64,000 nucleotides of DNA from Actinomycetota bacterium (GTDB taxonomy: Bacteria > Actinomycetota > Acidimicrobiia > Acidimicrobiales > RAAP-2), in assembly GCA_021324355.1 (NCBI GenBank), contig JAJPJD010000057.1, positions 1-64,000 of the forward strand. The letters are read 5' to 3'. Of this stretch, positions 20,238 to 61,034 are shown one piece after another (position 1 is the stretch's first letter; the number at the start of each line of letters is the position of its first letter). The position numbers and the translations under genes are program-made. Below the pieces are notes generated by a model that saw nothing but the letters and a program-made list of their open reading frames with translations, made no database searches and was not told the DNA's origin.

Positions 20238-21059
20238 CTAGCGACCCCTGAAGACCGGCTCGCGCTTGTCGACGAAGGCCGCGGCTGCCTCCCGGTGGTC
20301 CTCGGTGAGGCCGGTGCGGATGTGATGCGCCGCCTCCATGTCCAGGCACTCCCCGAGCTCCCCCAGCACCGCCCGATTGAGGTTCTCCTTCATGTAGCGG
20401 TAGGCGACCCTCGGGCCGGCGGCCAGCCGGCGGGCCACCGCCAGGGTCTCGGCCTCCAGCTGGTCGTCGGGGACCACCGCGTTGAGCAGCCCGAGGCCGA
20501 GCGCCTCCGACGCGTCCAGCCGGGGAGAGAGGAAGTACAGCTCGCGCGCCTTGGCCGGCCCGACCAGCCGGGTGAGGAACCAGGTCCCGCCGTAGTCACC
20601 GGCCAGGGCAACCCGGGCGAAGGCGGTGGTGAGCACCGCCCGCTCGGCGCCGTAACGGAGGTCGCAGGCAAGGGCCAACGACAGGCCAGCCCCGGCCGCC
20701 GGGCCCGGCACCATCGCAATGGTCGGCTTGGGCATCTCGAACAACCGCCCCGAGGTGGCCCGCTGGTCGAGCCGCTGCCGGTGGATCCGCCCGTCGATGG
20801 TGGCCCGGCCCCCGCCGCCGCCCTCGTTGGCCCGGGCCATCTCCTTCACGTCGCCGCCGGCGCAGAAGGCGCCACCGGCCCCGGTGAGGACCACGCAGCC
20901 GACGTCGTCGTCGACCTCCACTCGGGCCAGGGTCGCCCCGAGCGCACGCAACATGGTGGGCGTCAGCGCGTTGCGACGCTCCGGGCGGTTCATGGTCAGC
21001 ACCGCCACACCGTCATCGACCGTTGCCAGCAGCTCCTCGGTCCCGGTGTCGAGCTCCAT
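20238..21059 (-). CDS. Enoyl-CoA hydratase/isomerase-family protein
   Basis: A 273-residue crotonase-fold protein. The first oxyanion-hole segment is GAGGAFCAGGDVKEM and the second is MVPGPAAGAGLSLALACDL, followed by TTAFARVALAGDYGGTWFLTRLVG. The two catalytic glutamates of true hydratases are not seen; an Asp (AGDYGG) occupies the region where PaaG/isomerase-like members have an acid, so an isomerase or other CoA-ester activity is as likely as hydration. First gene of an operon with the VOC protein. The upstream 213-base gap carries the DevR-like boxes described separately, nearer to the divergent gene. Confidence 0.88.
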   Translation of the reverse strand: MELDTGTEELLATVDDGVAVLTMNRPERRNALTPTMLRALGATLARVEVDDDVGCVVLTGAGGAFCAGGDVKEMARANEGGGGGRATIDGRIHRQRLDQRATSGRLFEMPKPTIAMVPGPAAGAGLSLALACDLRYGAERAVLTTAFARVALAGDYGGTWFLTRLVGPAKARELYFLSPRLDASEALGLGLLNAVVPDDQLEAETLAVARRLAAGPRVAYRYMKENLNRAVLGELGECLDMEAAHHIRTGLTEDHREAAAAFVDKREPVFRGR

Positions 21060-21153: not shown

Positions 21154-21189
21154 GGGACCAAGGTCCCACCACGAAGGGTCCCTCGACCC
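21154..21189. promoter_or_regulatory. Two tandem DosR/DevR-box-like palindromes
   Basis: GGGACCAAGGTCCC (21154-21167) is a perfect 5-bp-arm palindrome that fits the mycobacterial DosR core GGGAC-N4-GTCCC; with flanks it reads TTCGGGACCAAGGTCCCACC, matching about 15 of 20 positions of the known consensus. A second palindrome, GGGTCCCTCGACCC (21176-21189), follows with centres 22 bases apart, two helical turns. They lie 84-119 bases before the 21273 gene and between it and the divergent hydratase gene. A DevR-like regulator is encoded 3 kb away. Binding is inferred, not shown. Confidence 0.6.
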
Positions 21190-21272
21190 TGCCGCCGCGA
21201 CCCGGGGGCGGCCGATCCTGGAGGTGAGCCACCGGAAGCGGTGGCCAGGAGGATCGAGGAGAAGAGAGGCAG

Positions 21273-21890
21273 ATGCTACGCAAGACCTTCGACGTGCTGG
21301 TGTCGGGCGGCGGCCTGATCCTGGCGGTGGTGCTGGTCGTCGCCGGGGCGCTCGCCTTCTGGGGCTACAGCTTCACCAGCACCAACGTGCACAACCAGCT
21401 GGCCGAGCAGAAGATCTACTTCCCGCCCAAGTCCGCCTTCGCCCACGCCAAGCCGGGCACCGAGATCACCCCGTCGATGATCCCCTCGGTGTCGCAGTAC
21501 GCGGGCCAGGAGCTGACCACCGGGGCCCAGGCCGAGGTGTACGCCAACGACTTCATCGCCGTGCACCTGCAGGAGATCGGCGGCGGCAAGACCTACGCCC
21601 AGATGAGCACGCTGGCCCGGACCCTGCCGCCGGGCTCGCCGGCAGCCGCCAAGGCCGAGGCCGCGGCCCAGACCCTGTTCCAGGGGACCACGCTGCGGGG
21701 CCTGCTGCTCGAGGCCTACTCGTTCTCGGTGTTCGGCGAGATCGCCTTCGTCGCCGCGATCGTCTCCTGGTCGCTGGCCTTCGTCCTGGTCGTGCTGGCC
21801 ATCCTGGGCCTGATCCACGCCCGCCGCACCAGCGAGGCCGAGGAACTGGTCGGTGCCCGGATCGTCCACGAGGAGGTGGGCGCTCGCTGA
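21273..21890 (+). CDS. Two-helix membrane protein of unknown function
   Basis: A 205-residue protein with one membrane segment near the N-terminus (GGGLILAVVLVVAGALAFWGY) and a second near residues 152-182 (IAFVAAIVSWSLAFVLVVLAILGLI), leaving a 120-residue domain outside the cytoplasm that contains YFPPKSAFAHAKPGTEITP and a YAGQELTTGAQAEVYANDFI stretch. The tail is short and charged. It resembles a conserved actinobacterial membrane protein, but I cannot name a function. AGGAGGATCGAGGAGAAGAG just upstream gives a strong ribosome site. The tandem DevR-like boxes upstream suggest induction by hypoxia, nitric oxide or redox stress. Confidence 0.8.
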   Translation: MLRKTFDVLVSGGGLILAVVLVVAGALAFWGYSFTSTNVHNQLAEQKIYFPPKSAFAHAKPGTEITPSMIPSVSQYAGQELTTGAQAEVYANDFIAVHLQEIGGGKTYAQMSTLARTLPPGSPAAAKAEAAAQTLFQGTTLRGLLLEAYSFSVFGEIAFVAAIVSWSLAFVLVVLAILGLIHARRTSEAEELVGARIVHEEVGAR

Positions 21891-24255: not shown

Positions 24256-24933
24256 GTGGTGCCGATTCGAGTCTTTCTGGTCGACGACCACGACGTCGTG
24301 CGGGCCGGCCTGCGGGCCCTCCTCGAGCCCGAGGACGACCTCGAGGTGGTGGGGGACGCCGGCACTGCCGCCGATGCCCTGGTCAGGATCCCCCTGGCCA
24401 AACCGGACGTGGTGGTCCTCGACGTCCGCCTCCCAGACGGCAGCGGGATCGAGGTCTGCCGACAGGTGCGCTCGGACCGGCCGGAGACGGCGTGCCTCAT
24501 CCTCACCTCCTACGCCGACGATGAAGCGCTCCTGGCCGCGGTCATGGCGGGGGCGGCCGGGTACCTCCTCAAGCAGATCGCCGGCAACGACCTGGTCGCC
24601 AACATTCGCACGGTGGCCACCGGAGCCTCCCTGCTCGACCCCAGACTCACCCAGCGGGTCCTCGAGCGAGTGCGCCGGGGGCCTCAAGAGGACGAGCGGC
24701 TGGCGACGCTCACGCCCCAGGAGCGCCGGATCCTGGACCAGATCGCCCTGGGCCGAACCAACCGCCAGATCGGCGAAGCGCTGTTCTTGGCCGAGAAGAC
24801 GGTCAAGAACTACGTGTCGAACCTCCTCGCCAAGCTGGGCATGACCCGGCGGACCGAAGCGGCGGTCTTCGCCACCCGGCTGGCCGCCCAACGGGAGGCG
24901 CCCGGTCAGCACCCCCCCTCCGAGGGGACCTGA
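24256..24933 (+). CDS. DevR/DosR-like response regulator
   Basis: A 225-residue NarL/FixJ-type regulator. Receiver: FLVDDHDVVRAGL (Asp pair), phospho-site VVVLDVRLPDGSG, ILTSYADDEALL (Thr/Ser) and GYLLKQIAG (Lys). DNA-binding domain: LTPQERRILDQIALGRTNRQIGEALFLAEKTVKNYVSNLLAKLGM. The wording of both domains (AVMAGAAGYLLKQI, LFLAEKTVKNYVS) is very close to mycobacterial DevR/DosR, which responds to hypoxia, NO and CO. Start is one of two adjacent GTG codons (24256 or 24259). No kinase is adjacent; the DevS-like kinase at 33.1 kb is the likely partner. DosR-box-like sites lie at 21.15 kb and possibly 27.6 kb. Confidence 0.9.
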   Translation: MVPIRVFLVDDHDVVRAGLRALLEPEDDLEVVGDAGTAADALVRIPLAKPDVVVLDVRLPDGSGIEVCRQVRSDRPETACLILTSYADDEALLAAVMAGAAGYLLKQIAGNDLVANIRTVATGASLLDPRLTQRVLERVRRGPQEDERLATLTPQERRILDQIALGRTNRQIGEALFLAEKTVKNYVSNLLAKLGMTRRTEAAVFATRLAAQREAPGQHPPSEGT

Positions 24934-25005
24934 CCCCGCCGCCGCCTGCGACGCCCGGTGGGGCCGCAGGGGCGCCCGGCGGCCTCAAGTGCAAGCATTC
25001 GGTCC

Positions 25006-26991
25006 ATGACCAAGCAGGCCAAGACCCCGCCGACCGTGGACAAGGGCGCGCCGATCGCCCCGCCGCCCCCGCCGGCCTGGCGGCACTACCTGTGGCTCAT
25101 CGCGCTGGGCGTGTTCCTCCTTCTCTTCTTCACCCTGCCAACCGTTCGCCCGAGCACCGTCACCCTCAACTACACCCAGTTCCTCCACGACGTGGCCGGC
25201 CACAAGGTCAAGACCGTCACCATCGCGACCGACGGGAGCGCGTCGGGCACGCTGGCCGACGGCAGCTCGTACACCACCGCCATTCCCCCGCAAGCGGGCC
25301 AGAGCCTGCTCAACGACTTGCAGTCGCACGGGGTGCAGGTCAGCGCGACCGCGTCGAGCACCTCCTTCGGCGCCGAAGTGCTGTCCTGGCTGATCCTCCT
25401 CCTGCCGTTCCTGGTCCTCGGGTACTTCTGGTGGCGTCTGTCGCGGGGAGCAGCCGGCCGGCTGCAGGGCGTGCTCGGAGTGGGTCGCTCGCGGGCCAAG
25501 GTCTTCGATGAGGAACGGCCCACGACCAAGTTCTCCGACGTCGCCGGGTACGAGGGCGCCAAGTTCGAGATCAAAGAGGTCGTCGACTTCCTGCGCAACC
25601 CGGAGCGCTACGCCCGGGCCGGGGCCATCGCTCCCCGCGGGGTGCTCATGATCGGTCCGCCAGGGACCGGCAAGACGCTGTTGGCCCGGGCGGTGGCCGG
25701 CGAGGCCGACGTGCCCTTCTTCTCGGTCACCGGGTCGAGCTTCGTGGAGATGTTCGTCGGTGTCGGGGCAGCACGGGTGCGGGACCTGTTCCAGGAGGCT
25801 CGCAAGCGCGCCCCGGCGATCATCTTCGTCGACGAGGTCGATGCCATCGGCCAGCGCCGGTCGGGCAACCGGGCCCTGGTGGCCAACGACGAGCGAGAGC
25901 AGACCCTCAACCAGCTCCTGGCCGAGATGGACGGGTTCGACCCGGCAACCGGGATCATCGTGCTGGCGGCGACCAACCGCCCCGAAGTCCTGGACCCGGC
26001 GCTGCTCCGCCCGGGAAGGTTCGACCGCCAGATCGTCATCCCACTCCCGACCCTGTCCGAGCGAGCGGCGATCCTGGCGGTCCACTGCCGGGGCAAGCGG
26101 CTCGACCCGAGCGTCGACCTCGACGTGGTGGCGCGAGGGACCCCCGGGTTCTCGGGCGCCGATCTCGCCCACCTGGTCAACGAAGCTGCCATCGTGGCGG
26201 TCCGGGACAACCGGGACTTCCTCATCGCCTCGGACTTCGACGAGGCGCGCGACCGGGTCATCCTGGGCCGGCGCGAAGGCTCCAACGTGCTGCTGGACGA
26301 GGAGAAGCGCTCGGTCGCGGTCCACGAGGCCGGCCATGCCCTGGTCGCCGCCTACTCCGACCGGGCTGACCCCGTCTCCAAGGTGACCATCCTCCCGGCC
26401 GGCCAGTCCCTGGGGGTGACCGAGCAGCTGCCCCTGGTCGAGCGACACCTGTTCGGGGAGGACTACCTGGCCGACACCCTGGCCGTCCTGCTGGGCGGCC
26501 GAGCGAGCGAGCTGGTGGTGCTGGGGCGAGGGTCCACCGGCGCCAGCAACGACCTTGCCAAGGCCACCGAGCTCGCCACCAAGATGGTGCGCGAGTTCGG
26601 GCTGTCCGAGGCGATCGGACCGGTCGGCTACCCGACCGGCGGGTCCGTCTACCTCGACGGGGGCGGGAGCGAGTTCTCGACCCGGCCGTTCGCCGAGGCG
26701 ACCCAGGCGGCCATCGACCGGGAGGTGGCGCGGCTGTTACGGGAAGCCGAGCAGCGAGCCGTCGTGGTGCTGCGCTCCCACCGTGACGTCCTGGACCGCC
26801 TGGTGGAGCTGCTCCTCGCCCGAGAGACCATCGACGGTGCCGAGGTGTACGCGCTGGCCGGACGGCCGGTGCCCGAAGGGGGGGCCCGCATCAGCTGGGC
26901 TCCGGCCCGCTCCGGGGCGGCCCCAGAGCAACCAGACGACCTGGTCGGGCCGCTCCGGGCGCCGCTCGACGGCGGCCAGGCCGGGCGCTGA
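25006..26991 (+). CDS. ftsH: FtsH-type membrane AAA+ zinc protease
   Basis: A 661-residue ATP-dependent membrane protease. Two membrane helices ([36 protein letters not shown]) flank an external FtsH_ext domain, then the AAA module: Walker A GPPGTGKT, Walker [12 protein letters not shown], second region of homology [20 protein letters not shown], and the zinc site HEAGH with a distal Asp region ([10 protein letters not shown]). The C-terminus is shorter and less acidic than in the housekeeping enzyme and the family word [12 protein letters not shown] is kept, so this may be an accessory stress FtsH. The ATG at 25006 has weak upstream Shine-Dalgarno. It lies 72 bases after the DevR-like gene. 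Confidence 0.92.
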
Positions 26992-27104
26992 GGCTCGGTC
27001 GGGGTTCGAGGATTCCTGCGGCGGCGTCCTCGCCGGCTGGGTCGACCGTCGAGGTCGGCCGAGCCCGAAGCGCGCGCCGATCGGCGACCGGACCCGCCCG
27101 AGCG

Positions 27105-27122
27105 CGGGCGCGGCTGCGCCCG
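27105..27122. terminator. GC-rich hairpin between convergent genes
   Basis: CGGGCGC, loop GGCT, GCGCCCG form a perfect 7-bp stem between the end of ftsH (+) and the DUF1801 gene (-). There is no U-run on either side, which is common in actinobacteria. It could stop transcription from both directions. The rest of the 185-base gap shows nothing else. Confidence 0.45.
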
Positions 27123-27176
27123 GGCGATCCGACCGGCCGGCGGGGTGTCACTCGAGAGCGGTGAGGGGCGGCGCCC

Positions 27177-27578
27177 TCACCGCCAGCCCGGCGTGCGGCT
27201 CGCCTCCTCGATCCAGCGGTGCAGCACCGGATCCTGTGCCTCCTCGACCGTGGTCACTTTCACGTAACGGGTGCGATCGGCGATCCCGAGTGGTGGCGGG
27301 CACTCGAAGTCGGCGCCACCCAGGAACATCACGTTCACCGAGACGGCATACGCCGCCAACTCGATGAGCCAGCCGAGCTCGGGGAGCCCGTAGAACGGCC
27401 GCTTCCACTTGAGCGCGTAGTGGAGCCTCGGGATGGTCGCTCGGATCGACTCGTCCAGCAACCGCAGGATGGGCTGCAGATGCGGCACCTGACGCTCCAT
27501 CCACGACTCGATCTGGGCGTGGTCACAGGACGGCTCTGGCGGGGTTCGCCCGGCGTTCCCCTTGATCGTCTTCGTCAT
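27177..27578 (-). CDS. DUF1801-family protein
   Basis: A 133-residue protein of the DUF1801 (YdhG/YdeI-like) fold. The motif LLDESIRATIPRLHYALKWKRPFYGLPE with a following GWLIELAAYAVSVNVMFLGGADF is typical, as is the end RYVKVTTVEEAQDPVLHRWIEEA. The family adopts a small alpha/beta fold of unknown biochemical role; some members are linked to stress or iron binding. It diverges from the HTH-flavin-barrel gene at 27736 and shares a 157-base region holding two palindromes. Confidence 0.85.
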   Translation of the reverse strand: MTKTIKGNAGRTPPEPSCDHAQIESWMERQVPHLQPILRLLDESIRATIPRLHYALKWKRPFYGLPELGWLIELAAYAVSVNVMFLGGADFECPPPLGIADRTRYVKVTTVEEAQDPVLHRWIEEASRTPGWR

Positions 27579-27625
27579 CGTGCCTCGTTCGGTGGGCCCG
27601 CAGCCACCGGTGGTGCCTGCAGCGA

Positions 27626-27685
27626 GGGACTCGAGTCAGCCGTCACCGTCGCGAGCCTTCCCTGCGTCGTCGGGTCCAACGACCC
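27626..27685. promoter_or_regulatory. Two possible DevR-type palindromes between divergent genes
   Basis: GGGACTCGAGTCAG (27626-27639) fits 12 of 14 positions of the symmetric GGGACT-N2-AGTCCC core. GGGTCCAACGACCC (27672-27685) has the same GGGTC-N4-GACCC layout as the second box at 21176. Their centres are 46 bases apart. They lie before the HTH-flavin-barrel gene and behind the start of the DUF1801 gene. Weaker than the 21.15-kb pair. Confidence 0.4.
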
Positions 27686-27735
27686 TGGCACCCAGGACTG
27701 CCACGCGTCACCGTAGAGGAGGAAGGGAGGACGCG

Positions 27736-28380
27736 ATGAGCAGGGTTGGAGACTTGGGGCGCCGGGTCGCCCGGCGCCGAGAGGAGCTGGGAATCAGCCG
27801 GGATGAAGTGGCGACACGGGCATCGATGCACCCGAGCTTCGTCGAGCTGATCGAGGAGAGCCCGGCACCCCGGCTCACCACGGGTGCGCTCCGGCGGCTG
27901 GCCAGCGCCCTCGACACCACCGTCGATGCCCTGAGCGGCGGTGGCATGCTCGCGCCCCCCGGCCGCTCGGTCCCTCCGGCCGGAGCCCGAACGGTCCAGC
28001 TCGACCCCGAGACCTGCCGCCAACGCATCGAGCCGGGCGGCGTGGGTCGGGTCGTGTTCGGCAGCCCGCGTGGGTCGGTCGCGGTCCCGGTCAACTTCAA
28101 AGTGCTCAATGGCGACATCGTCTTTCGCACCGATGCTGCAGCCGAGGTCGTCGAAGCTGTCCGCCGGGGCCCGGTCTCCTTCGAGGTCGACCACCTCGAC
28201 GATGCCCTGCGCGAGGGCTGGAGCGTGCTCGTGTCCGGAACCGGCCGCGTCGTCGACGGGGATGCCGAACTCGAGTCAGTAAGGACCCTGGGGATCACCC
28301 CGTGGGCGGGCGGCACCAAAGACCGCTACGTTCGAATCACCCCGTCGGTGATCACGGGACGAGAGATCCGGCACCCCTGA
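27736..28380 (+). CDS. XRE-type HTH plus flavin split-barrel (PNPOx-like) protein
   Basis: A 214-residue two-domain protein. Residues 5-65 are an XRE/Cro helix-turn-helix (GRRVARRREELGISRDEVATRASMHPSFVE); residues 90-205 are a pyridoxamine-5'-phosphate-oxidase-like split barrel (GGVGRVVFGSPRGSVAVPVNFKVLNGDIVFRTD, VSFEVDHLDDALREGWSVLVSGTGRVV). Such fusions are common in actinobacteria and may sense flavin, F420 or redox state to control DNA binding. A strong ribosome site (GAGGAGGAAGGGAGG) precedes the ATG. The acetyltransferase gene follows after 10 bases, so it probably leads an operon through the deacetylase gene. Confidence 0.88.
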   Translation: MSRVGDLGRRVARRREELGISRDEVATRASMHPSFVELIEESPAPRLTTGALRRLASALDTTVDALSGGGMLAPPGRSVPPAGARTVQLDPETCRQRIEPGGVGRVVFGSPRGSVAVPVNFKVLNGDIVFRTDAAAEVVEAVRRGPVSFEVDHLDDALREGWSVLVSGTGRVVDGDAELESVRTLGITPWAGGTKDRYVRITPSVITGREIRHP

Positions 28381-28390
28381 GGTGGGGCCC

Positions 28391-28978
28391 GTGACCACCA
28401 GCTCCGAGCCCCGAAACGACGCGACGCCTGCCGTTGGCCGCTACCCCGATGAGCTCGAGGGAGATGTGGTCACCGGGCTCAACACCGTGGTCCACGTCCG
28501 GCCGATCCGACCCGACGACGCCGAGCGGCTCGCAGCATTCCACCAGCGGCTCAGCCCACGATCGATCTACTTTCGCTTCTTCTCCCCCCACCCCCGGCTG
28601 TCGCCGGCCGAGGTCGAGCGGTTCACCACCGTCGACTACGTGGACCGGTTGGCCCTGGTCGCCGAAGTCGAAGACGAGTTGGTGGGTATCGGCCGCTACG
28701 ATCGCATCGGCACGAGCGAGGCCGAGATCGCGTTCGTGGTGGCCGACGCCTGGCAGCACCACGGGATCGCGACCATGCTGCTCGAGCTGCTCGCCGAGGC
28801 AGCCCGGGCTCGTGGCATCGACACCTTCGTCGCCTCCACCCTTCCGGACAACCACGAGATGATCCACCTCCTCACACACTCGGGCTTCGAGGCCACGCTG
28901 CGATTCGCCGACGGCGTGGTGACGGCTCGGCTCCCGATCGGTCACTCTCGCCACTGCCGCCACGCCGGGCCGCAGTGA
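28391..28978 (+). CDS. GNAT-family N-acetyltransferase
   Basis: A 195-residue acetyltransferase of the protein-Pat-like type. Motif order: VVHVRPIRPDDAERLAAFHQRLSPRSIYFRFF, VDRLALVAEVEDELVGIGRYDR, the acetyl-CoA loop VADAWQHHGIATMLLELLAEAARARG (Q-x-x-G-I/x-A), and NHEMIHLLTHSGF. The SPRSIYFRFF block is typical of acetyltransferases that modify lysines of enzymes such as acyl-CoA synthetases. The GTG at 28391 follows GAGGTGGGG closely; an in-frame GTG at 28382 is possible. The deacetylase starts 4 bases downstream. Confidence 0.88.
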   Translation: MTTSSEPRNDATPAVGRYPDELEGDVVTGLNTVVHVRPIRPDDAERLAAFHQRLSPRSIYFRFFSPHPRLSPAEVERFTTVDYVDRLALVAEVEDELVGIGRYDRIGTSEAEIAFVVADAWQHHGIATMLLELLAEAARARGIDTFVASTLPDNHEMIHLLTHSGFEATLRFADGVVTARLPIGHSRHCRHAGPQ

Positions 28979-28982
28979 GCGC

Positions 28983-30017
28983 ATGCTGATCGTCGGCGGG
29001 CCGCTGGCCGCCCTCGAACATCGCCGAGCCGGTCACCCCGAGCGGCCAGAGCGGATCGACGCCGTCATGGCCGGCCTCGGCGACCTACACCTGGGAGAAG
29101 ATCTGGAGCTGGTTCGTGGCGAGCCCGCCGACCTGGACCGGCTCGCCCTCGTGCACCAACCGGCGTACCTGCAGGCGCTCCGTGCCTTCTGCGAGGCCGG
29201 AGGGGGCGATCTCGATCCCGACACCTACGCCACCGCCACGTCCTTCGACGCCGCCCGGGCTGCGGTCGGTGCCGGCCTGGCTGTCGTCGAGCAGCTCAAG
29301 CGGCGCAGCGACGGGGTCGGCTTCGTGGCCGCCCGTCCCCCCGGGCACCATGCCCTGCCTGGCCGGGCCATGGGCTTCTGCCTGCTCAACGCGGTCGCGG
29401 TGGCCGCGGCCAGTCTGGCTGCCGACGGCGAGCGGGTCCTCGTCGTCGACTGGGACGTCCACCACGGCAACGGGACCCAGGAGATCTTCTGGGACCACCC
29501 CTTAGTGCTGTACGTCTCGACCCACCAGTCGCCTCTCTATCCGGGGACCGGGGCGGCCGGGGAGGTCGGCGGGCCCGGGGCTGCCGGATTGACCGTCAAC
29601 ATCCCGCTTCCCCCGGGCACGACCGGCAGCGTGCTCCGGCGCGCCCTGGCCGAGGTGGCAGGACCAGTGATCGACGCCTTCGGTCCCACCTGGGTCCTGG
29701 TCTCCTCGGGGTTCGACGCCCACCGGGACGACCCGTTGGCCAACCTCGTGCTCTCGAGCGGCGACTTCGCGCTGTTGGCCCGGTGGGTCGCCGGTTGGAC
29801 GCCCGGCCCCGGCCGCCTGGCGCTGTTCTTGGAGGGCGGGTACGACCTGGCAGCCGTCCGAGCCTCGGTGGCCGCGACCGTGGGCGAGCTGCTCGGTGCT
29901 CCCGGCCGACACGACGCCCCCGCCGACGGGCCCGAGGGCTCGGCGCTGGTCGACCGGCTCGCCTCCGAACGGGCGGCGGCCCTCCGCCGAGCAGGGGCAC
30001 CGGATCCCCGCCGCTGA
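28983..30017 (+). CDS. Class II histone-deacetylase-like (AcuC/HdaH) enzyme
   Basis: A 344-residue zinc-dependent deacetylase. Key motifs: HRRAGHPERPERIDAVM at the N-terminus, RPPGHHALPGRAMGFCLLNAVAVAA (His-His charge relay), LVVDWDVHHGNGTQEIF (Asp and His zinc ligands), STHQSPLYPGTG, VSSGFDAHRDDPL (Asp ligand) and LEGGYDLAAV. All catalytic residues are present. In bacteria such enzymes remove acetyl groups from proteins (AcuC) or polyamines. The adjacent upstream GNAT gene suggests a writer-eraser pair for protein acetylation. Confidence 0.92.
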   Translation: MLIVGGPLAALEHRRAGHPERPERIDAVMAGLGDLHLGEDLELVRGEPADLDRLALVHQPAYLQALRAFCEAGGGDLDPDTYATATSFDAARAAVGAGLAVVEQLKRRSDGVGFVAARPPGHHALPGRAMGFCLLNAVAVAAASLAADGERVLVVDWDVHHGNGTQEIFWDHPLVLYVSTHQSPLYPGTGAAGEVGGPGAAGLTVNIPLPPGTTGSVLRRALAEVAGPVIDAFGPTWVLVSSGFDAHRDDPLANLVLSSGDFALLARWVAGWTPGPGRLALFLEGGYDLAAVRASVAATVGELLGAPGRHDAPADGPEGSALVDRLASERAAALRRAGAPDPRR

Positions 30018-30051
30018 GCCCGGCCGTGGGCCTCGGGGCCGGCACCGGCGG

Positions 30052-30069
30052 AATACCCGGGGGAGTATT
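30052..30069. promoter_or_regulatory. CsoR/RcnR-family operator-like palindrome with G-tract
   Basis: AATACCCGGGGGAGTATT has perfect 5-bp arms (AATAC/GTATT) around a run of five G, the layout of operators bound by CsoR/RcnR/CstR-family repressors (A-T-A-C arms with a G/C tract). It lies 52 bases before the thioredoxin gene that heads the operon encoding a CsoR-type repressor, so autoregulation is likely. A second small palindrome, TGGGGTTGTCCCCA (30069-30082), follows directly. Confidence 0.6.
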
Positions 30070-30120
30070 GGGGTTGTCCCCAGTAGGTGCCGAGGTGGTG
30101 CCAGCAGACGAGGAGGCCAC

Positions 30121-30495
30121 ATGACCACCGTTGCCGTGGGAGCAGATCGATTCGACGAGACCGTCGAGGCCAACGACATCGTCCTGGTGGACTTCTGGGC
30201 TTCCTGGTGCGGCCCGTGCCGGATGTTCGCGCCGGTGTTCGAGCAGGCCTCTGATGCTCACCCTGAGATCACCTTCGCCAAGGTGGACACCGAGGCCGAG
30301 CCAGAGCTGGCAGCCCGCTTCCGGATCATGTCCATCCCCACCCTCATGGCCTTCCGGGACCAGATCCTCCTCTACGCCCAACCGGGAGCCCTTCCGGCGG
30401 CTGCATTGGAGGAGCTGATCACCAAGATCAAAGAGCTCGACATGGACGAGGTCCGGCGCACGCTGGCACAGGGGCGCTCCGGGGACGGACAGTGA
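30121..30495 (+). CDS. Thioredoxin-fold protein
   Basis: A 124-residue thioredoxin. The active site is FWASWCGPCRMF (W-C-G-P-C), and the cis-proline is in MSIPTLMAF. Length and order match classic thioredoxin, with a C-terminal extension of about 15 residues (DEVRRTLAQGRSGDGQ). It would reduce disulfides or persulfides in the cytoplasm; no signal peptide. First gene of a run with the CsoR-type repressor (55-base gap), DUF302 and PIG-L genes. The operator upstream suggests that the repressor controls it. Confidence 0.93.
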   Translation: MTTVAVGADRFDETVEANDIVLVDFWASWCGPCRMFAPVFEQASDAHPEITFAKVDTEAEPELAARFRIMSIPTLMAFRDQILLYAQPGALPAAALEELITKIKELDMDEVRRTLAQGRSGDGQ

Positions 30496-30550
30496 GCGTG
30501 CCGGTCCGAGAGCCAACCTTGCGCGCAAGCCAACCGAGGAGAGGGGGCCA

Positions 30551-30820
30551 GTGCCGCTACCTGAGGACGTAACCGACGACGTGCGCCGTCGCCTGCGGCG
30601 GGTGGCCGGCCAGGTCCAGGGCATCGAGCGGATGCTGGCCGACGGGCGGGACTGCCGGGAGGTGATCCAACAGCTGTCAGCAGCGATCAGGGCTCTGGAA
30701 CGAGCTGGATTCCGTTTGGTGTCGGCCGGGCTCGCCTACTGCTTAGAGAGCCCAGATGAGGCTGCTGTCGATGGGTACGCCATGGACAGCCTGCAGCGGT
30801 TGTTCATGACGCTCGCTTGA
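30551..30820 (+). CDS. CsoR/FrmR/CstR-family repressor lacking the copper His
   Basis: An 89-residue all-helical repressor (DUF156). Family words: RRRLRRVAGQVQGIERMLADGRDC and AIRALERAGFRLVSAGLAYC. Cys35 and Cys64 correspond to the two conserved cysteines, but the position four before Cys64, His in copper-sensing CsoR, is Gly60. A C-x-C pair without the His is what the persulfide sensor CstR has, so sulfur or thiol stress is a better guess than copper. The GTG start follows GAGGAGAGGGGG. Flanked by thioredoxin and DUF302 genes, which fits a thiol/sulfur theme. Confidence 0.9.
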   Translation: MPLPEDVTDDVRRRLRRVAGQVQGIERMLADGRDCREVIQQLSAAIRALERAGFRLVSAGLAYCLESPDEAAVDGYAMDSLQRLFMTLA

Positions 30821-30835
30821 GCCCAAGGAGGTGCC

Positions 30836-31222
30836 ATGCAAGGGATCGAGAGGACACTGAACGCACCGCTAGCCGATGCCGAAGCCCACGTTCGCGAGGC
30901 GCTCGCCGAGGAGGGCTTCGGGGTCCTGACCGAGATCGACGTCGCCGAGACCCTGAAGGCCAAACTCGGCATCGAGCGTTCCCCGCTCAAGATCCTGGGT
31001 GCGTGCAACCCCACGCTGGCGCAGCGAGCGCTCGATCTGGACCCGTCGGTGGCGCTCGTGCTGCCATGCAACGTCGTGCTCGACGAGGCCATGCCGGGCC
31101 AGACCCGGGTCACCCTCGCCGACCCGCGCCAGCTCCTGGCGGGAGACCACCTGGGCGAGCTGGCCGAGGAGGCAGCCCAACGCCTCAGCCGGGTCAGCGA
31201 ACGGCTGGCCGCTGCTCGGTGA
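30836..31222 (+). CDS. DUF302-domain protein
   Basis: A 128-residue DUF302 protein: MQGIERTLNAPLADAEAHVREALAEEGFGVLTEIDVAETLKAKLG, then ILGACNPTLAQRALDLDPSVALVLPCNVVL and an end rich in Arg. The fold is a small alpha/beta domain; two cysteines (GAC, LPC) are conserved in the family and may bind a ligand or metal. DUF302 genes are often next to CsoR-type and thioredoxin genes, as here. It starts 15 bases after the repressor with AAGGAGG before the ATG. Biochemical role unknown. Confidence 0.92.
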   Translation: MQGIERTLNAPLADAEAHVREALAEEGFGVLTEIDVAETLKAKLGIERSPLKILGACNPTLAQRALDLDPSVALVLPCNVVLDEAMPGQTRVTLADPRQLLAGDHLGELAEEAAQRLSRVSERLAAAR

Positions 31223-31228
31223 CCCACC

Positions 31229-32002
31229 GTGGCCCCGGTCGGGACCGAGCCCGGCGGGTCCGACCACCGGGGCTCCGGTGATCGGCTCCCCCGGGTCCGT
31301 GCGGCGCTCGCGGTCTGCGCCCATCCCGACGACGAGAGCTTCGGGCTCGGCGCGGTGCTGGCCGGATTCGCCCAGGGCGGGGCAGCCTTGTCCCTGGTCT
31401 GTTTCACCAGGGGCGAGGCGTCGACCCTCGGTGGCCGCGATGTAGACCTGACGCAGCAGCGGACCGACGAGCTGTCCCGAGCCTCAGGTGTCCTGGGCGT
31501 GAGCCAGGTGTCGCTCCTCGACCACGCCGACGGGCATCTGACCGAGGTCCCCTTGGCGACCTTGGTCGACGAGGTCGGCACCGCGCTCGCCGCATGCCGG
31601 CCGGAGCTGGTGCTCGTCTTCGACGAGGGCGGCGTCACCGGGCATCCCGACCATCGCCGGGCCACCGAGGCCGCGATGGCAGCCACCGCGGCGACCGGTC
31701 TGCCGGTCCTCGCCTGGAGCGTGGCCGCTGAGGTGGCCGCGACGCTGAACCGAGAGCTCGGGACCGAGTTCATCGGGCGCCCGTTCGATGCGATCGACCT
31801 GGCGGTCCAGCTCGACCGAGCCCGCCAGCTCCAGGCGATCCGCTGCCATGCCAGCCAGTCAGCCGACAACCCGGTGCTCACCCGCCGCCTCGAACTGCAA
31901 GGCGACCGAGAGGTCCTCCGCTGGCTGCGACCTCCGGTCGGCAACGCCGGCCGCTCAGCCACCGGAGCCAGTTGCCCCGGTGCGCCAGGGACCCCGTGCT
32001 GA
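31229..32002 (+). CDS. PIG-L/LmbE-family deacetylase
   Basis: A 257-residue zinc deacetylase of the LmbE/PIG-L family. The metal motif AHPDDESFGLG (H-x-D-D) starts near residue 32, and the third ligand is in GGVTGHPDHRRATEAA. Members remove N-acetyl from sugars such as GlcNAc-inositol in mycothiol synthesis (MshB) or from cofactor conjugates (Mca-like). The thiol-linked neighbourhood makes a mycothiol-type role conceivable, but that is inference. The GTG start lies 6 bases after DUF302, suggesting cotranscription; the C-terminal 20 residues look disordered. Confidence 0.88.
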   Translation: MAPVGTEPGGSDHRGSGDRLPRVRAALAVCAHPDDESFGLGAVLAGFAQGGAALSLVCFTRGEASTLGGRDVDLTQQRTDELSRASGVLGVSQVSLLDHADGHLTEVPLATLVDEVGTALAACRPELVLVFDEGGVTGHPDHRRATEAAMAATAATGLPVLAWSVAAEVAATLNRELGTEFIGRPFDAIDLAVQLDRARQLQAIRCHASQSADNPVLTRRLELQGDREVLRWLRPPVGNAGRSATGASCPGAPGTPC

Positions 32003-32076
32003 CCGCTCGACCGGATCGTCGGGACCGGGCCGCGCTCGGCGCGGGCCCGGGCATTGGCGGTGCCCGGGCGTCCCGC

Positions 32077-32580
32077 TCAGCGGGGTCGACCCGTGCCCTG
32101 CGCCCAGCCCGCCCGATCATGGGCCGGGTCCAGCCCCCGGCAGATGTCGGTCAGAAAGGCGCGCACCGTCGCCTCGGCTAGGCGATGGAGCAGCATCTGG
32201 TCGATGCTGCGCCCGAGCGCGCCGCCCGGAGGGTCGTACCGGGCCCGCAGGCAGAGCTGGGTCTGTCCGGCACCGAATGGTGCTGCTTCCAAGTCGGCGT
32301 CGAGGCGCGGGAACAGCGACACCCCGTCGGTCGCCTCCCAGCTGAGCGGGACCAGCACCGAGTCGCCGTGCTCGCGCGCGGGGCCCGCCCGGATCCGGAC
32401 CTGCTTGGAAAAGACCGCCGGCCAGCTCGCCGGGCCGACTCTGGCCCGGATGGCCTCGCCTTGGACCCGGGCACCCTTGAGCGCGGCCCGCAGGAGGGCC
32501 TCGGTGCGCTCGCCGGCCTCCAGGTGCGGACGGACCCAGTGGTAGGGGCGGTCGATCACCTCGAAGTCCTGCACGAACAC
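32077..32580 (-). CDS. Unknown protein, SRPBCC-like
   Basis: A 167-residue protein started at the GTG at 32580, which has GGAGGG upstream and lies 2 bases after the stop of the universal-stress-protein gene. It begins VFVQDFEVIDRPYHWVRPHLEAGERTEALL and later alternates strands (SVLVPLSWEATDG, LDADLEAAPFGAGQTQLCLRARYDP) before a C-terminal helix (IDQMLLHRLAEATVRAFLTDIC), the outline of a START/SRPBCC ligand-binding fold. The family assignment is by shape only. Cotranscription with the stress protein is likely. Confidence 0.7.
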   Translation of the reverse strand: MFVQDFEVIDRPYHWVRPHLEAGERTEALLRAALKGARVQGEAIRARVGPASWPAVFSKQVRIRAGPAREHGDSVLVPLSWEATDGVSLFPRLDADLEAAPFGAGQTQLCLRARYDPPGGALGRSIDQMLLHRLAEATVRAFLTDICRGLDPAHDRAGWAQGTGRPR

Positions 32581-32582
32581 GG

Positions 32583-33056
32583 TCAACCCTCCGGTCGAAC
32601 GATGGTGACCGGACACGGCGCGTGGTGGGCGACCTGGGCGCTCACCGAGCCGAGCAGCAGCCCGGCGAACCCGCCCCTGCCCCTCGAACCGACCACCACC
32701 AGCTGGGCGTCTCGCGCCGCCTCGAGGATCACTGCCGCTGCCGGGCCTTCGGTCACCTCCGAGACGATCTCGACCTGCGGATCGGGCCCGAGGACGGTGG
32801 CCAGCTGCTCCTCCAGGCCCGCGGTGGCCTCCTCGCCCCAGCTCTCGACCGTGCCAGGGGGCAGGGCGACCGTGTCGCCGTAGCCGACCGCCGGGAACTG
32901 CCAGGCCCGCACGACCTTGAGCTTGGTGCCCCGCAGGCGGGCCTCCTCGGCCGCCCACCGCAAGGCAGCGGACGAGGCCGGTGAGCCATCTACCCCCACG
33001 ACTACCGGGCCGGCGTGACCTCCGGGCCCTGCGATCCCATCCGACGTGCGCTCCAT
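32583..33056 (-). CDS. Universal stress protein (UspA family)
   Basis: A 157-residue single-domain Usp. The N-terminal strand-loop VVVGVDGSPASSAALRWAAEEARLRG and the ATP-binding motif VVGSRGRGGFAGLLLGSVSAQV (G-x2-G-x9-G-S) are complete, so it should bind ATP. Usp proteins are core members of the mycobacterial DosR regulon. The ATG at 33056 follows GGAGGTGG. It diverges from the DevS-like kinase; the 93-base gap holds GGGACC half-sites but no full DevR box that I could find. Confidence 0.93.
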   Translation of the reverse strand: MERTSDGIAGPGGHAGPVVVGVDGSPASSAALRWAAEEARLRGTKLKVVRAWQFPAVGYGDTVALPPGTVESWGEEATAGLEEQLATVLGPDPQVEIVSEVTEGPAAAVILEAARDAQLVVVGSRGRGGFAGLLLGSVSAQVAHHAPCPVTIVRPEG

Positions 33057-33149
33057 CGAAGACCACCTCCAATCCCACCCTGACGGATCGGGACCGGGCG
33101 CGCTAGGGCCATTCGGCCGGGGCAGGCCACCGGTCGTAGGCTCCGTCCC

Positions 33150-34625
33150 GTGCCCACGGCGCGCCCCGAGCTCGAGATCGCCCTGGTCCAGGCGTCCCCC
33201 GACGCGGTGATCGTGGTCGACGCCGCCGGGCGCATCGAGATGGCCAACCCGGCAGTCGAATCGCTGTTCGGATGGGCACCCGAAGAGCTCATCGGACAGC
33301 CGGTCGAACTGCTCCTCCCCGAGGAGCTGCGGGACCTCCACCGGCGCCACCGCGCTGGCTATGCCGCCCGCCCGGTCGCCCGGGCGATGGGCTCGGGGCT
33401 GGATTTGCACGGCCGGCGCCGGGATGGAACGAGCTTCCCGGTGGACGTGGGCCTGGCCCCGCTGACCGCTGGCGGCGCGATCCGGGTCGGCGCCTTCGTC
33501 CGAGACGCGACCGACCGGCGGCGAGGCGAGGATCTGTTGCGTTACGTGAACGAGATCAGCCGCGAGCTGTTGGCCGGTGAGGACACCGCCGACACCCTCC
33601 GCCTCACTGCGAACCGGGCTCGCGTGCTGGTGGAGGCCGAGGCGGCGTGGATCGTCGTCCCGCGGGGCTCCTCGCTCACGGTTGCCGCGGCCGATGGCAC
33701 AGGCGCGGAGGTCCTGGTCGGTGCCAACGTGCCCGCAGGAACCAGCCTGTCCGCCAAGGTGATGCGCAGCGGTCGGCCGCTGGCAATCGGCGAGATGGCG
33801 GCCGATCCGGCGGTGATCGCCGAGGCCCGGCCGCTGGGCCTCGGACCGGGGCTGTACCTGCCGATGGCAGCCGAGAGCCGCTCGCTCGGCACACTGGTGG
33901 TCGCCCGGGCCGCCAGCCGCCCGCCCTTCGGGCCCAGCGAGGCCGAGGCCCTGGCGGTCTTCGCGTCGGCGGCCGCGATCGTCTTGTCCCTGGGCCAAGC
34001 CCGGGAGGAGCTGGAAGCCCTGCGCCTGGTATCCGAGCACGAGCGGATCGCCCGGGACCTCCACGACACCGTGATCCAGCGCTTGTTCGCGCTCGGCATG
34101 TCCCTCCAGGGGCTGCAGCGACTCGCCGACGGCGTCGTCGCCGAGCGGATCGCGGCCGCGGTCGGGGCGATCGACGACGTGATCCGTGAGATCCGCGAAA
34201 CCATCTTCGACCTGTCCCAACCGGCCGCCGGCGGTCCCGAGATCCGTCGGAAGCTACGCGACGTTGTGAGGGAGGCCGGCCAACAACTCGGCTTCGCGCC
34301 CCGAGTGGGCTTCCGGGGCCCGGTCGAGGCGGCAATCGACGACCGGTTGGTCCCGGACCTCTTGTCGGTAGTCCGCGAAGCGCTCTCGAACGTCGCCCGT
34401 CACGCCCACGCCACGGCGGTCGAGGTCGTCCTCGAGGCCCAGGACAGCTCCGTCCTCCTCACCGTGGCCGACAACGGCGTTGGGATTCCAGACGGGCCCT
34501 CCGCCGGCCATGGGATCGCCAACCTGCAAGCACGGGCATCGAAGCTCGGAGGTGAGCTCCGCCTCGACCGGCGGCACCCCTCGGGCACCCTCCTGCAGTG
34601 GCGTGTCCCGAGCCGTAGCGACTGA
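33150..34625 (+). CDS. DevS-like sensor histidine kinase (PAS-GAF-HisKA_3)
   Basis: A 491-residue kinase without membrane segments. Residues about 1-120 form a PAS domain (DAVIVVDAAGRIEMANPAVESLFGW), about 125-285 a GAF domain (LRLTANRARVLVEAEAAWIVV), about 295-370 the HisKA_3 dimerisation domain with the phospho-His in HERIARDLHDTVIQRLFALGM, and the C-terminus an HATPase (LSNVARHAHATAVEV; DNGVGI; GHGIANLQARA). The His block matches mycobacterial DevS/DosT closely. DevS uses two GAF domains with heme; here PAS replaces the first, so the signal may differ. The DevR-like regulator at 24.3 kb is the best partner candidate. Confidence 0.9.
   Translation: MPTARPELEIALVQASPDAVIVVDAAGRIEMANPAVESLFGWAPEELIGQPVELLLPEELRDLHRRHRAGYAARPVARAMGSGLDLHGRRRDGTSFPVDVGLAPLTAGGAIRVGAFVRDATDRRRGEDLLRYVNEISRELLAGEDTADTLRLTANRARVLVEAEAAWIVVPRGSSLTVAAADGTGAEVLVGANVPAGTSLSAKVMRSGRPLAIGEMAADPAVIAEARPLGLGPGLYLPMAAESRSLGTLVVARAASRPPFGPSEAEALAVFASAAAIVLSLGQAREELEALRLVSEHERIARDLHDTVIQRLFALGMSLQGLQRLADGVVAERIAAAVGAIDDVIREIRETIFDLSQPAAGGPEIRRKLRDVVREAGQQLGFAPRVGFRGPVEAAIDDRLVPDLLSVVREALSNVARHAHATAVEVVLEAQDSSVLLTVADNGVGIPDGPSAGHGIANLQARASKLGGELRLDRRHPSGTLLQWRVPSRSD

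Positions 34626-58294: not shown

Positions 58295-61034
<2,740 letters not shown>

What the first reader, a model, noticed from the sequence alone, without database searches (positions are those of the whole stretch)
21154..21189. Tandem DosR-box-like palindromes two helical turns apart
Seen: GGGACCAAGGTCCC and GGGTCCCTCGACCC with centres 22 bases apart. The first fits the DosR consensus at about 15 of 20 positions. A DevR-like regulator is encoded nearby. Predicts that the unknown membrane protein at 21273 belongs to a hypoxia/NO regulon outside mycobacteria.
Basis: partly seen in the sequence, partly recalled or inferred. Interest (0 to 1): 0.7.

Follow-up and report, generated by a model that had tools for sequence, protein, structure and literature searches.

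The report
Tandem DosR boxes before membrane-protein gene
In front of a gene for an uncharacterised membrane protein, this uncultured acidimicrobial bacterium carries a pair of landing sites for a close relative of the tuberculosis dormancy switch DosR, and the pair is conserved in many related bacteria, which points to a low-oxygen or nitric-oxide response outside mycobacteria.

Summary
GGGACCAAGGTCCC (21154-21167) and GGGTCCCTCGACCC (21176-21189) are there, centres 22 bp apart; the first fits the DosR consensus at 15 of 20 positions. As single palindromes they are close to chance (two exact GGGACCNNGGTCCC in 2.4 Mb, the other inside an mreB-like gene). As a pair they are not: a pair model built only from relatives finds one strong site in the whole genome, this one (E 7e-6; next 0.15). 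Upstream of 57 homologues of the membrane protein, box pairs peak sharply at 22-23 bp (27 and 24 regions against 0.9 expected), repeated in 58 further loci, absent from control regions. A -10-like element lies at a fixed distance, placing the inner box at -42.5. The regulator at 24259 is DosR-like: best PDB match DevR (E 5e-70), identical recognition helix. Its gene co-occurs with, and often lies near, the membrane gene; homologues in three genomes without DosR lack the boxes. The same pair precedes a DosS/DosT-type kinase and redox genes in relatives. So this is most likely a DosR-type activation site in Acidimicrobiales. Binding and signal are untested; the genome's only HisKA_3 kinase (33150) is not recognisably DosS.

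The parts
21154..21167 (.). Distal DosR-type box GGGACCAAGGTCCC
   Evidence: (top leave-one-out matrix score in the window, 17.8)
21176..21189 (.). Proximal (inner) DosR-type box GGGTCCCTCGACCC, weaker here, centre about -42.5 relative to the predicted start of transcription
21214..21219 (+). Predicted -10 element GATCCT (A and T positions conserved in relatives)
   Evidence: A in 21/29 at +31.5 and T in 20/29 at +35.5 from the inner box centre; in this genome shifted by 1 bp
21273..21890 (+). Target gene: 205-aa membrane protein of an unnamed family, two long helices
24259..24933 (+). DosR/DevR-type response regulator (alternative GTG start at 24256)
33150..34625 (+). PAS-GAF-HisKA_3-HATPase sensor kinase, the only HisKA_3 kinase found in the genome; candidate partner
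27672..27685 (.). Single DosR-type box GGGTCCAACGACCC upstream of the XRE/pyridoxamine-oxidase gene
   Evidence: conserved at -63 to -79 upstream of several orthologues
27736..28380 (+). XRE-HTH + pyridoxamine 5'-phosphate oxidase-like protein, second likely regulon member
33106..33119 (.). Weak candidate box GGGCCATTCGGCCG between the USP gene (-) and the kinase gene (+)
   Evidence: score 8.9; conservation not shown
32583..33056 (-). Universal stress protein, the strongest of 3 Usp in the genome

Best explanation
The two palindromes are a pair of adjacent binding sites for the DosR/DevR-type response regulator encoded at 24259-24933. When phosphorylated by a sensor kinase (most likely 33150-34625), the regulator binds both boxes cooperatively on the same face of the DNA (22 bp, two turns); the inner box lies where the -35 element would be, and the bound regulator recruits RNA polymerase to a weak -10 (GATCCT, 21214-21219), switching on the membrane-protein gene at 21273. 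Shown by sequence: the boxes, their conserved pairing and spacing, the -10 offset, the regulator's family and recognition helix, co-occurrence and gene linkage. Inferred: binding, cooperativity, direction (activation), and that the signal is low oxygen or NO.
For: Spacing statistic in 57 upstream regions: 27 at 22 bp and 24 at 23 bp against 0.9 expected; 0-1 in coding, downstream and far-upstream controls; at a stricter threshold 17 against 0.02, and in 58 independent loci 11 against 0.05. Pair model built without this site finds it as the only strong genome hit. -10-like columns at fixed offset put the inner box at -42.5, agreeing with M. tuberculosis promoters, where closely packed sites bind DevR cooperatively and the inner one overlaps -35 (PMC3029386). 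Regulator: DevR 3c3w E 5e-70, recognition helix AEKTVKNYVS identical. Co-occurrence of regulator and membrane gene 50/20/5/24, p 1e-6; one genome per family 12/9/1/17, p 7e-4; 21 of 25 same-contig pairs within 14 kb. Homologues in G051, G058 and G092, which lack a DosR, have no boxes. Pairs also precede a DosS/DosT-type kinase, DoxX, POR, cupredoxin and AhpD-like genes in relatives. The derived inner-box consensus GGGACCTTCGGCCC equals the OsdR site of SCO5978/5979, whose region OsdR bound in gel shifts (PMC5069765).
Against: Single boxes are near chance frequency in this genome. The inner box here is weak (8.1 on the matrix). About half of the homologues show no clear pair, including distant lineages. 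Relatives are not independent, so p-values are optimistic. No box upstream of the regulator itself was among the top window hits, and the local kinase is not a recognisable DosS. No binding or expression data.
Confidence: 0.86

Rival explanations
1. The palindromes are chance products of G+C-rich DNA with no function.
For: Single-box counts are near expectation; a similar-looking pair at 59525/59547 lies inside katG coding sequence and is probably chance.
Against: Spacing-specific conservation in two sets of upstream regions with clean controls, -10 offset, unique genome-wide pair hit.
Confidence: 0.03
2. The sites are bound by another NarL/LuxR-type regulator with a similar recognition helix, not by the 24259 product.
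For: NarL-type regulators are many in some relatives, with up to 12 hits at E<=1e-30, and binding has not been tested.
Against: Only 2 regulators of this class at E<=1e-30 in this genome; co-occurrence and close linkage with the DosR orthologue; the motif resembles known DevR/OsdR sites.
Confidence: 0.07
3. The boxes serve the divergent enoyl-CoA hydratase gene (20238-21059, -) rather than, or as well as, the membrane gene.
For: The outer box centre is about 100 bp from that gene's start; an OsdR target region in S. coelicolor lies between a hypothetical gene and an enoyl-CoA hydratase gene.
Against: The hydratase is found in only 2 of 80 related loci, whereas the boxes follow the membrane gene; the -10 lies on the membrane-gene side.
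Confidence: 0.08
4. The palindromes are RNA hairpins (terminator or attenuator).
For: They are inverted repeats.
Against: They lie between divergent genes, have 2-4 nt centres, no T-run follows, and what is conserved is consensus bases and 22-bp spacing.
Confidence: 0.02

Closest known systems
DosR/DevR regulon promoters of Mycobacterium tuberculosis
   Same: GGGAC-type palindromes, two closely packed sites, inner site overlapping -35, DosR-type regulator
   Different: Core is GGGACCTTCGGCCC-like; the lineage is Acidimicrobiales; the main conserved target is an unnamed membrane protein; this genome's kinase is PAS-GAF
OsdR regulon of Streptomyces coelicolor (PMC5069765)
   Same: A DevR orthologue outside mycobacteria; sites such as CGGGACCTTCGGCCCT; targets include USP, PNPOx, nitrate reductase and an enoyl-CoA hydratase/hypothetical pair
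   Different: OsdR consensus AGGGCCGATCGGCCCT is more G+C-rich in the centre; whether any OsdR target is a homologue of this membrane protein was not tested here; in this genome only one strong pair was found
FixL-type PAS oxygen sensors
   Same: PAS of the 33150 kinase is closest to FixL (E 5e-20) and keeps a His at the aligned F-helix position
   Different: The residue aligned with FixL's distal Arg is Leu (residue roles from memory); the kinase core is HisKA_3 (DevS/DosT-like); heme binding is untested

Membership tests
DosR/DevR response regulator | Receiver plus GerE (LuxR-type) DNA-binding domain | tested here: met
   PF00072 1.8e-25, PF00196 1.1e-17
DosR/DevR response regulator | Closest characterised protein is DevR, recognition helix and phospho-Asp region conserved | tested here: met
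   3c3w E 5e-70 against 2e-41 for the next; AEKTVKNYVS identical, VLDVRLPDG conserved
DosR/DevR response regulator | Partner DosS/DosT kinase with heme GAF domain | tested here: inconclusive
   only HisKA_3 kinase is PAS-GAF, ATPase domain DevS-like; same-genus G003 has a single-GAF DosS-like kinase next to DosR; genome 96% complete
DosR box promoter | Match to the 20-bp DosR consensus | tested here: met
   15/20; best core match (12/14) in the window
DosR box promoter | Two or more closely packed sites, inner site overlapping -35 | tested here: met
   (start of transcription predicted, not mapped); feature described in PMC3029386
DosR box promoter | Bound by phosphorylated DosR; induced in hypoxia or NO | not testable with these tools
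   needs gel shift, footprint and expression
DosR regulon | Several target genes of stress/redox type share the box | tested here: met
   PNPOx in this genome and relatives; relatives; in this genome only one strong pair

The most novel reading that the evidence does not exclude
In Acidimicrobiales the DosR system is tied above all to one unnamed two-helix membrane protein, which is its most widely conserved target and travels with the regulator; it would be an undescribed part of the bacterial response to low oxygen or NO, possibly driven in this species by a kinase with a FixL-like PAS in place of the DosS heme GAF.
Probability: 0.4. Interest if true: 0.65.

Novelty: new member of a known kind. 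Interest (0 to 1): 0.52.

Why it matters
DosR has been worked out mainly in mycobacteria and one Streptomyces. This extends a recognisable DosR promoter architecture to Acidimicrobiales, a deep and mostly uncultured actinobacterial order, and gives a membrane protein without any family name a testable regulatory context. The named strain Aciditerrimonas ferrireducens MV1 holds both genes within about 2.5 kb, so the link can be tested.

Tried and rejected
Single-palindrome counting over the genome could not decide: numbers are near chance. Pfam and NCBIfam gave no name for the membrane protein, nor did PDB profile search; its predicted model (mean pLDDT 91) had no convincing structural neighbour (helical-bundle matches of the kind expected by chance). 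The 59525/59547 pair was set aside because it lies inside katG. The other exact GGGACCNNGGTCCC is inside an mreB-like gene. Upstream of the kinase's relatives no consistent box was found, though several of those matches were partial so the scanned stretch was not always the true upstream region. A profile of the whole family was too variable for the genome-contig scan, so a narrower alignment was used. No paper in the library joins Acidimicrobi-, DosR and hypoxia; most subscription journals are not held.

Full report
Observation. Both palindromes are at the stated coordinates. The first is a 6-2-6 palindrome matching the 20-bp DosR consensus at 15 positions; the second has 5-bp arms around four bases. 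Centres are 22 bp apart. Exact GGGACCNNGGTCCC occurs at two places in the 2.45-Mb genome, the other inside an mreB-like gene; GGGACNNNNGTCCC occurs at eight places against four for the reversed control. Single boxes alone would therefore prove little.

Conservation. Homologues of the 21273 protein were found in 57 of 100 related genomes. The upstream regions of 57 homologues (the window's own included) were scored with the mycobacterial core consensus only (consensus from memory), so the motif was not fitted to these data. Best single matches of 10/14 or more occur in 46 of 57 regions against 19% in shuffles, and pairs peak at 22 bp (27 regions) and 23 bp (24 regions) against 0.9 expected. Coding, downstream and far-upstream stretches of the same loci gave 0 or 1. 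A second set of 58 loci not used before, from a scan of GTDB species, again peaked at 22 bp; at a stricter cut the numbers are 17 against 0.02 and 11 against 0.05. The boxes cluster about 80-130 bp before the start codon.

Whole-genome uniqueness. A sequence-only model of the pair built from 15 relatives, this site excluded, was searched in the whole genome. The window site scored 27.9 bits (E 7e-6); the next place scored 14.4 bits (E 0.15). In the window, a matrix built without this site ranks it first and the box at 27672 second.

Promoter. Aligning 29 loci on the inner box shows conserved A at +31.5 and T at +35.5, the second and sixth bases of a -10 hexamer, with little conserved between. 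This puts the inner box centre at -42.5, overlapping -35. Closely packed sites, an inner site overlapping -35 and cooperative binding are described for M. tuberculosis DevR targets (PMC3029386). In this genome the -10 is GATCCT (21214-21219), shifted by one base.

Regulator. The 24259 product has a receiver and a GerE domain. Its best solved relative is DevR (3c3w, E 5e-70, next 2e-41) and the recognition helix AEKTVKNYVS is identical. DosR-like genes and the membrane gene co-occur in relatives (50 both, 20 regulator only, 5 membrane gene only, 24 neither; p 1e-6; with one genome per family 12/9/1/17, p 7e-4); of 25 same-contig pairs 21 lie within 14 kb. Three genomes with the membrane gene but without DosR (G051, G058, G092) show no boxes; the other two exceptions are a 64%-complete and a fragmented genome. 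Genomes are related, so p-values are only indicative.

Other targets. In relatives the pair model also hits upstream of a GAF kinase whose domain matches DosT/DevS (E 2e-45), DoxX-like genes, a pyruvate:ferredoxin oxidoreductase subunit, a cupredoxin protein, an AhpD-like gene and P-type ATPases. In this genome the box at 27672 precedes an XRE/pyridoxamine-oxidase gene and is conserved at -63 to -79 before several orthologues; a pyridoxamine-oxidase gene is also a predicted OsdR target. The inner-box consensus derived here, GGGACCTTCGGCCC, is the OsdR site of the SCO5978/5979 region, which OsdR bound in gel shifts (PMC5069765).

Kinase. The only HisKA_3 kinase found in the genome is 33150-34625, PAS-GAF-HisKA_3-HATPase. 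Its PAS is closest to FixL (E 5e-20) and its ATPase domain to DevS/DosT. In the alignment shown there a His is aligned with FixL's F-helix His; the role of that residue as heme ligand is from memory. It is not a recognisable DosS heme-GAF kinase, whereas the same-genus G003 has a DosS-like GAF kinase next to its DosR. So the signal in this species is uncertain.

Membrane protein. No Pfam or NCBIfam family. The model (pLDDT 91) has a long N-terminal helix 3-45, short helices, and a long helix 123-185, consistent with two membrane passes and a helical outer part. No structural neighbour stands out. Neighbouring genes across species include DosR, sensor kinase, USP, PNPOx, histone-deacetylase-like and GNAT genes.

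Verdict. It is a new instance of a known regulatory architecture in a lineage where I found no report of it, with an unnamed membrane protein as its most widely conserved target. Binding, direction and signal remain to be tested.

Noticed in passing
33150-34625: The only HisKA_3 kinase found in the genome has a FixL-like PAS (E 5e-20) and a DevS/DosT-like ATPase domain; heme binding unknown.
   Followed up: partly
27672-27685 and 27736-28380: Conserved single DosR-type box before an XRE/pyridoxamine-oxidase gene; one relative (L214) has a 22-bp pair there.
   Followed up: partly
24259-34625: Stress-type gene cluster: DosR, FtsH, PNPOx, GNAT, histone-deacetylase-like, thioredoxin, DUF302, PIG-L, USP, kinase.
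   Followed up: partly
33106-33119: Weak box GGGCCATTCGGCCG between the USP and kinase genes; conservation not shown.
   Followed up: partly
58295-61034: Catalase-peroxidase next to a Fur-like regulator gene (reading of the translations); a chance-looking box pair at 59525/59547 lies inside the catalase gene.
   Followed up: no
L103 (G063:C30:38417-38458): Pair of boxes between an AhpD-like gene and a divergent DosS/DosT-type GAF kinase in a relative.
   Followed up: partly
L131, L139, L156, L159, L164, L174: Homologues of the membrane protein in other MAGs, including Dormiibacterota and Solirubrobacterales, lack the boxes.
   Followed up: no
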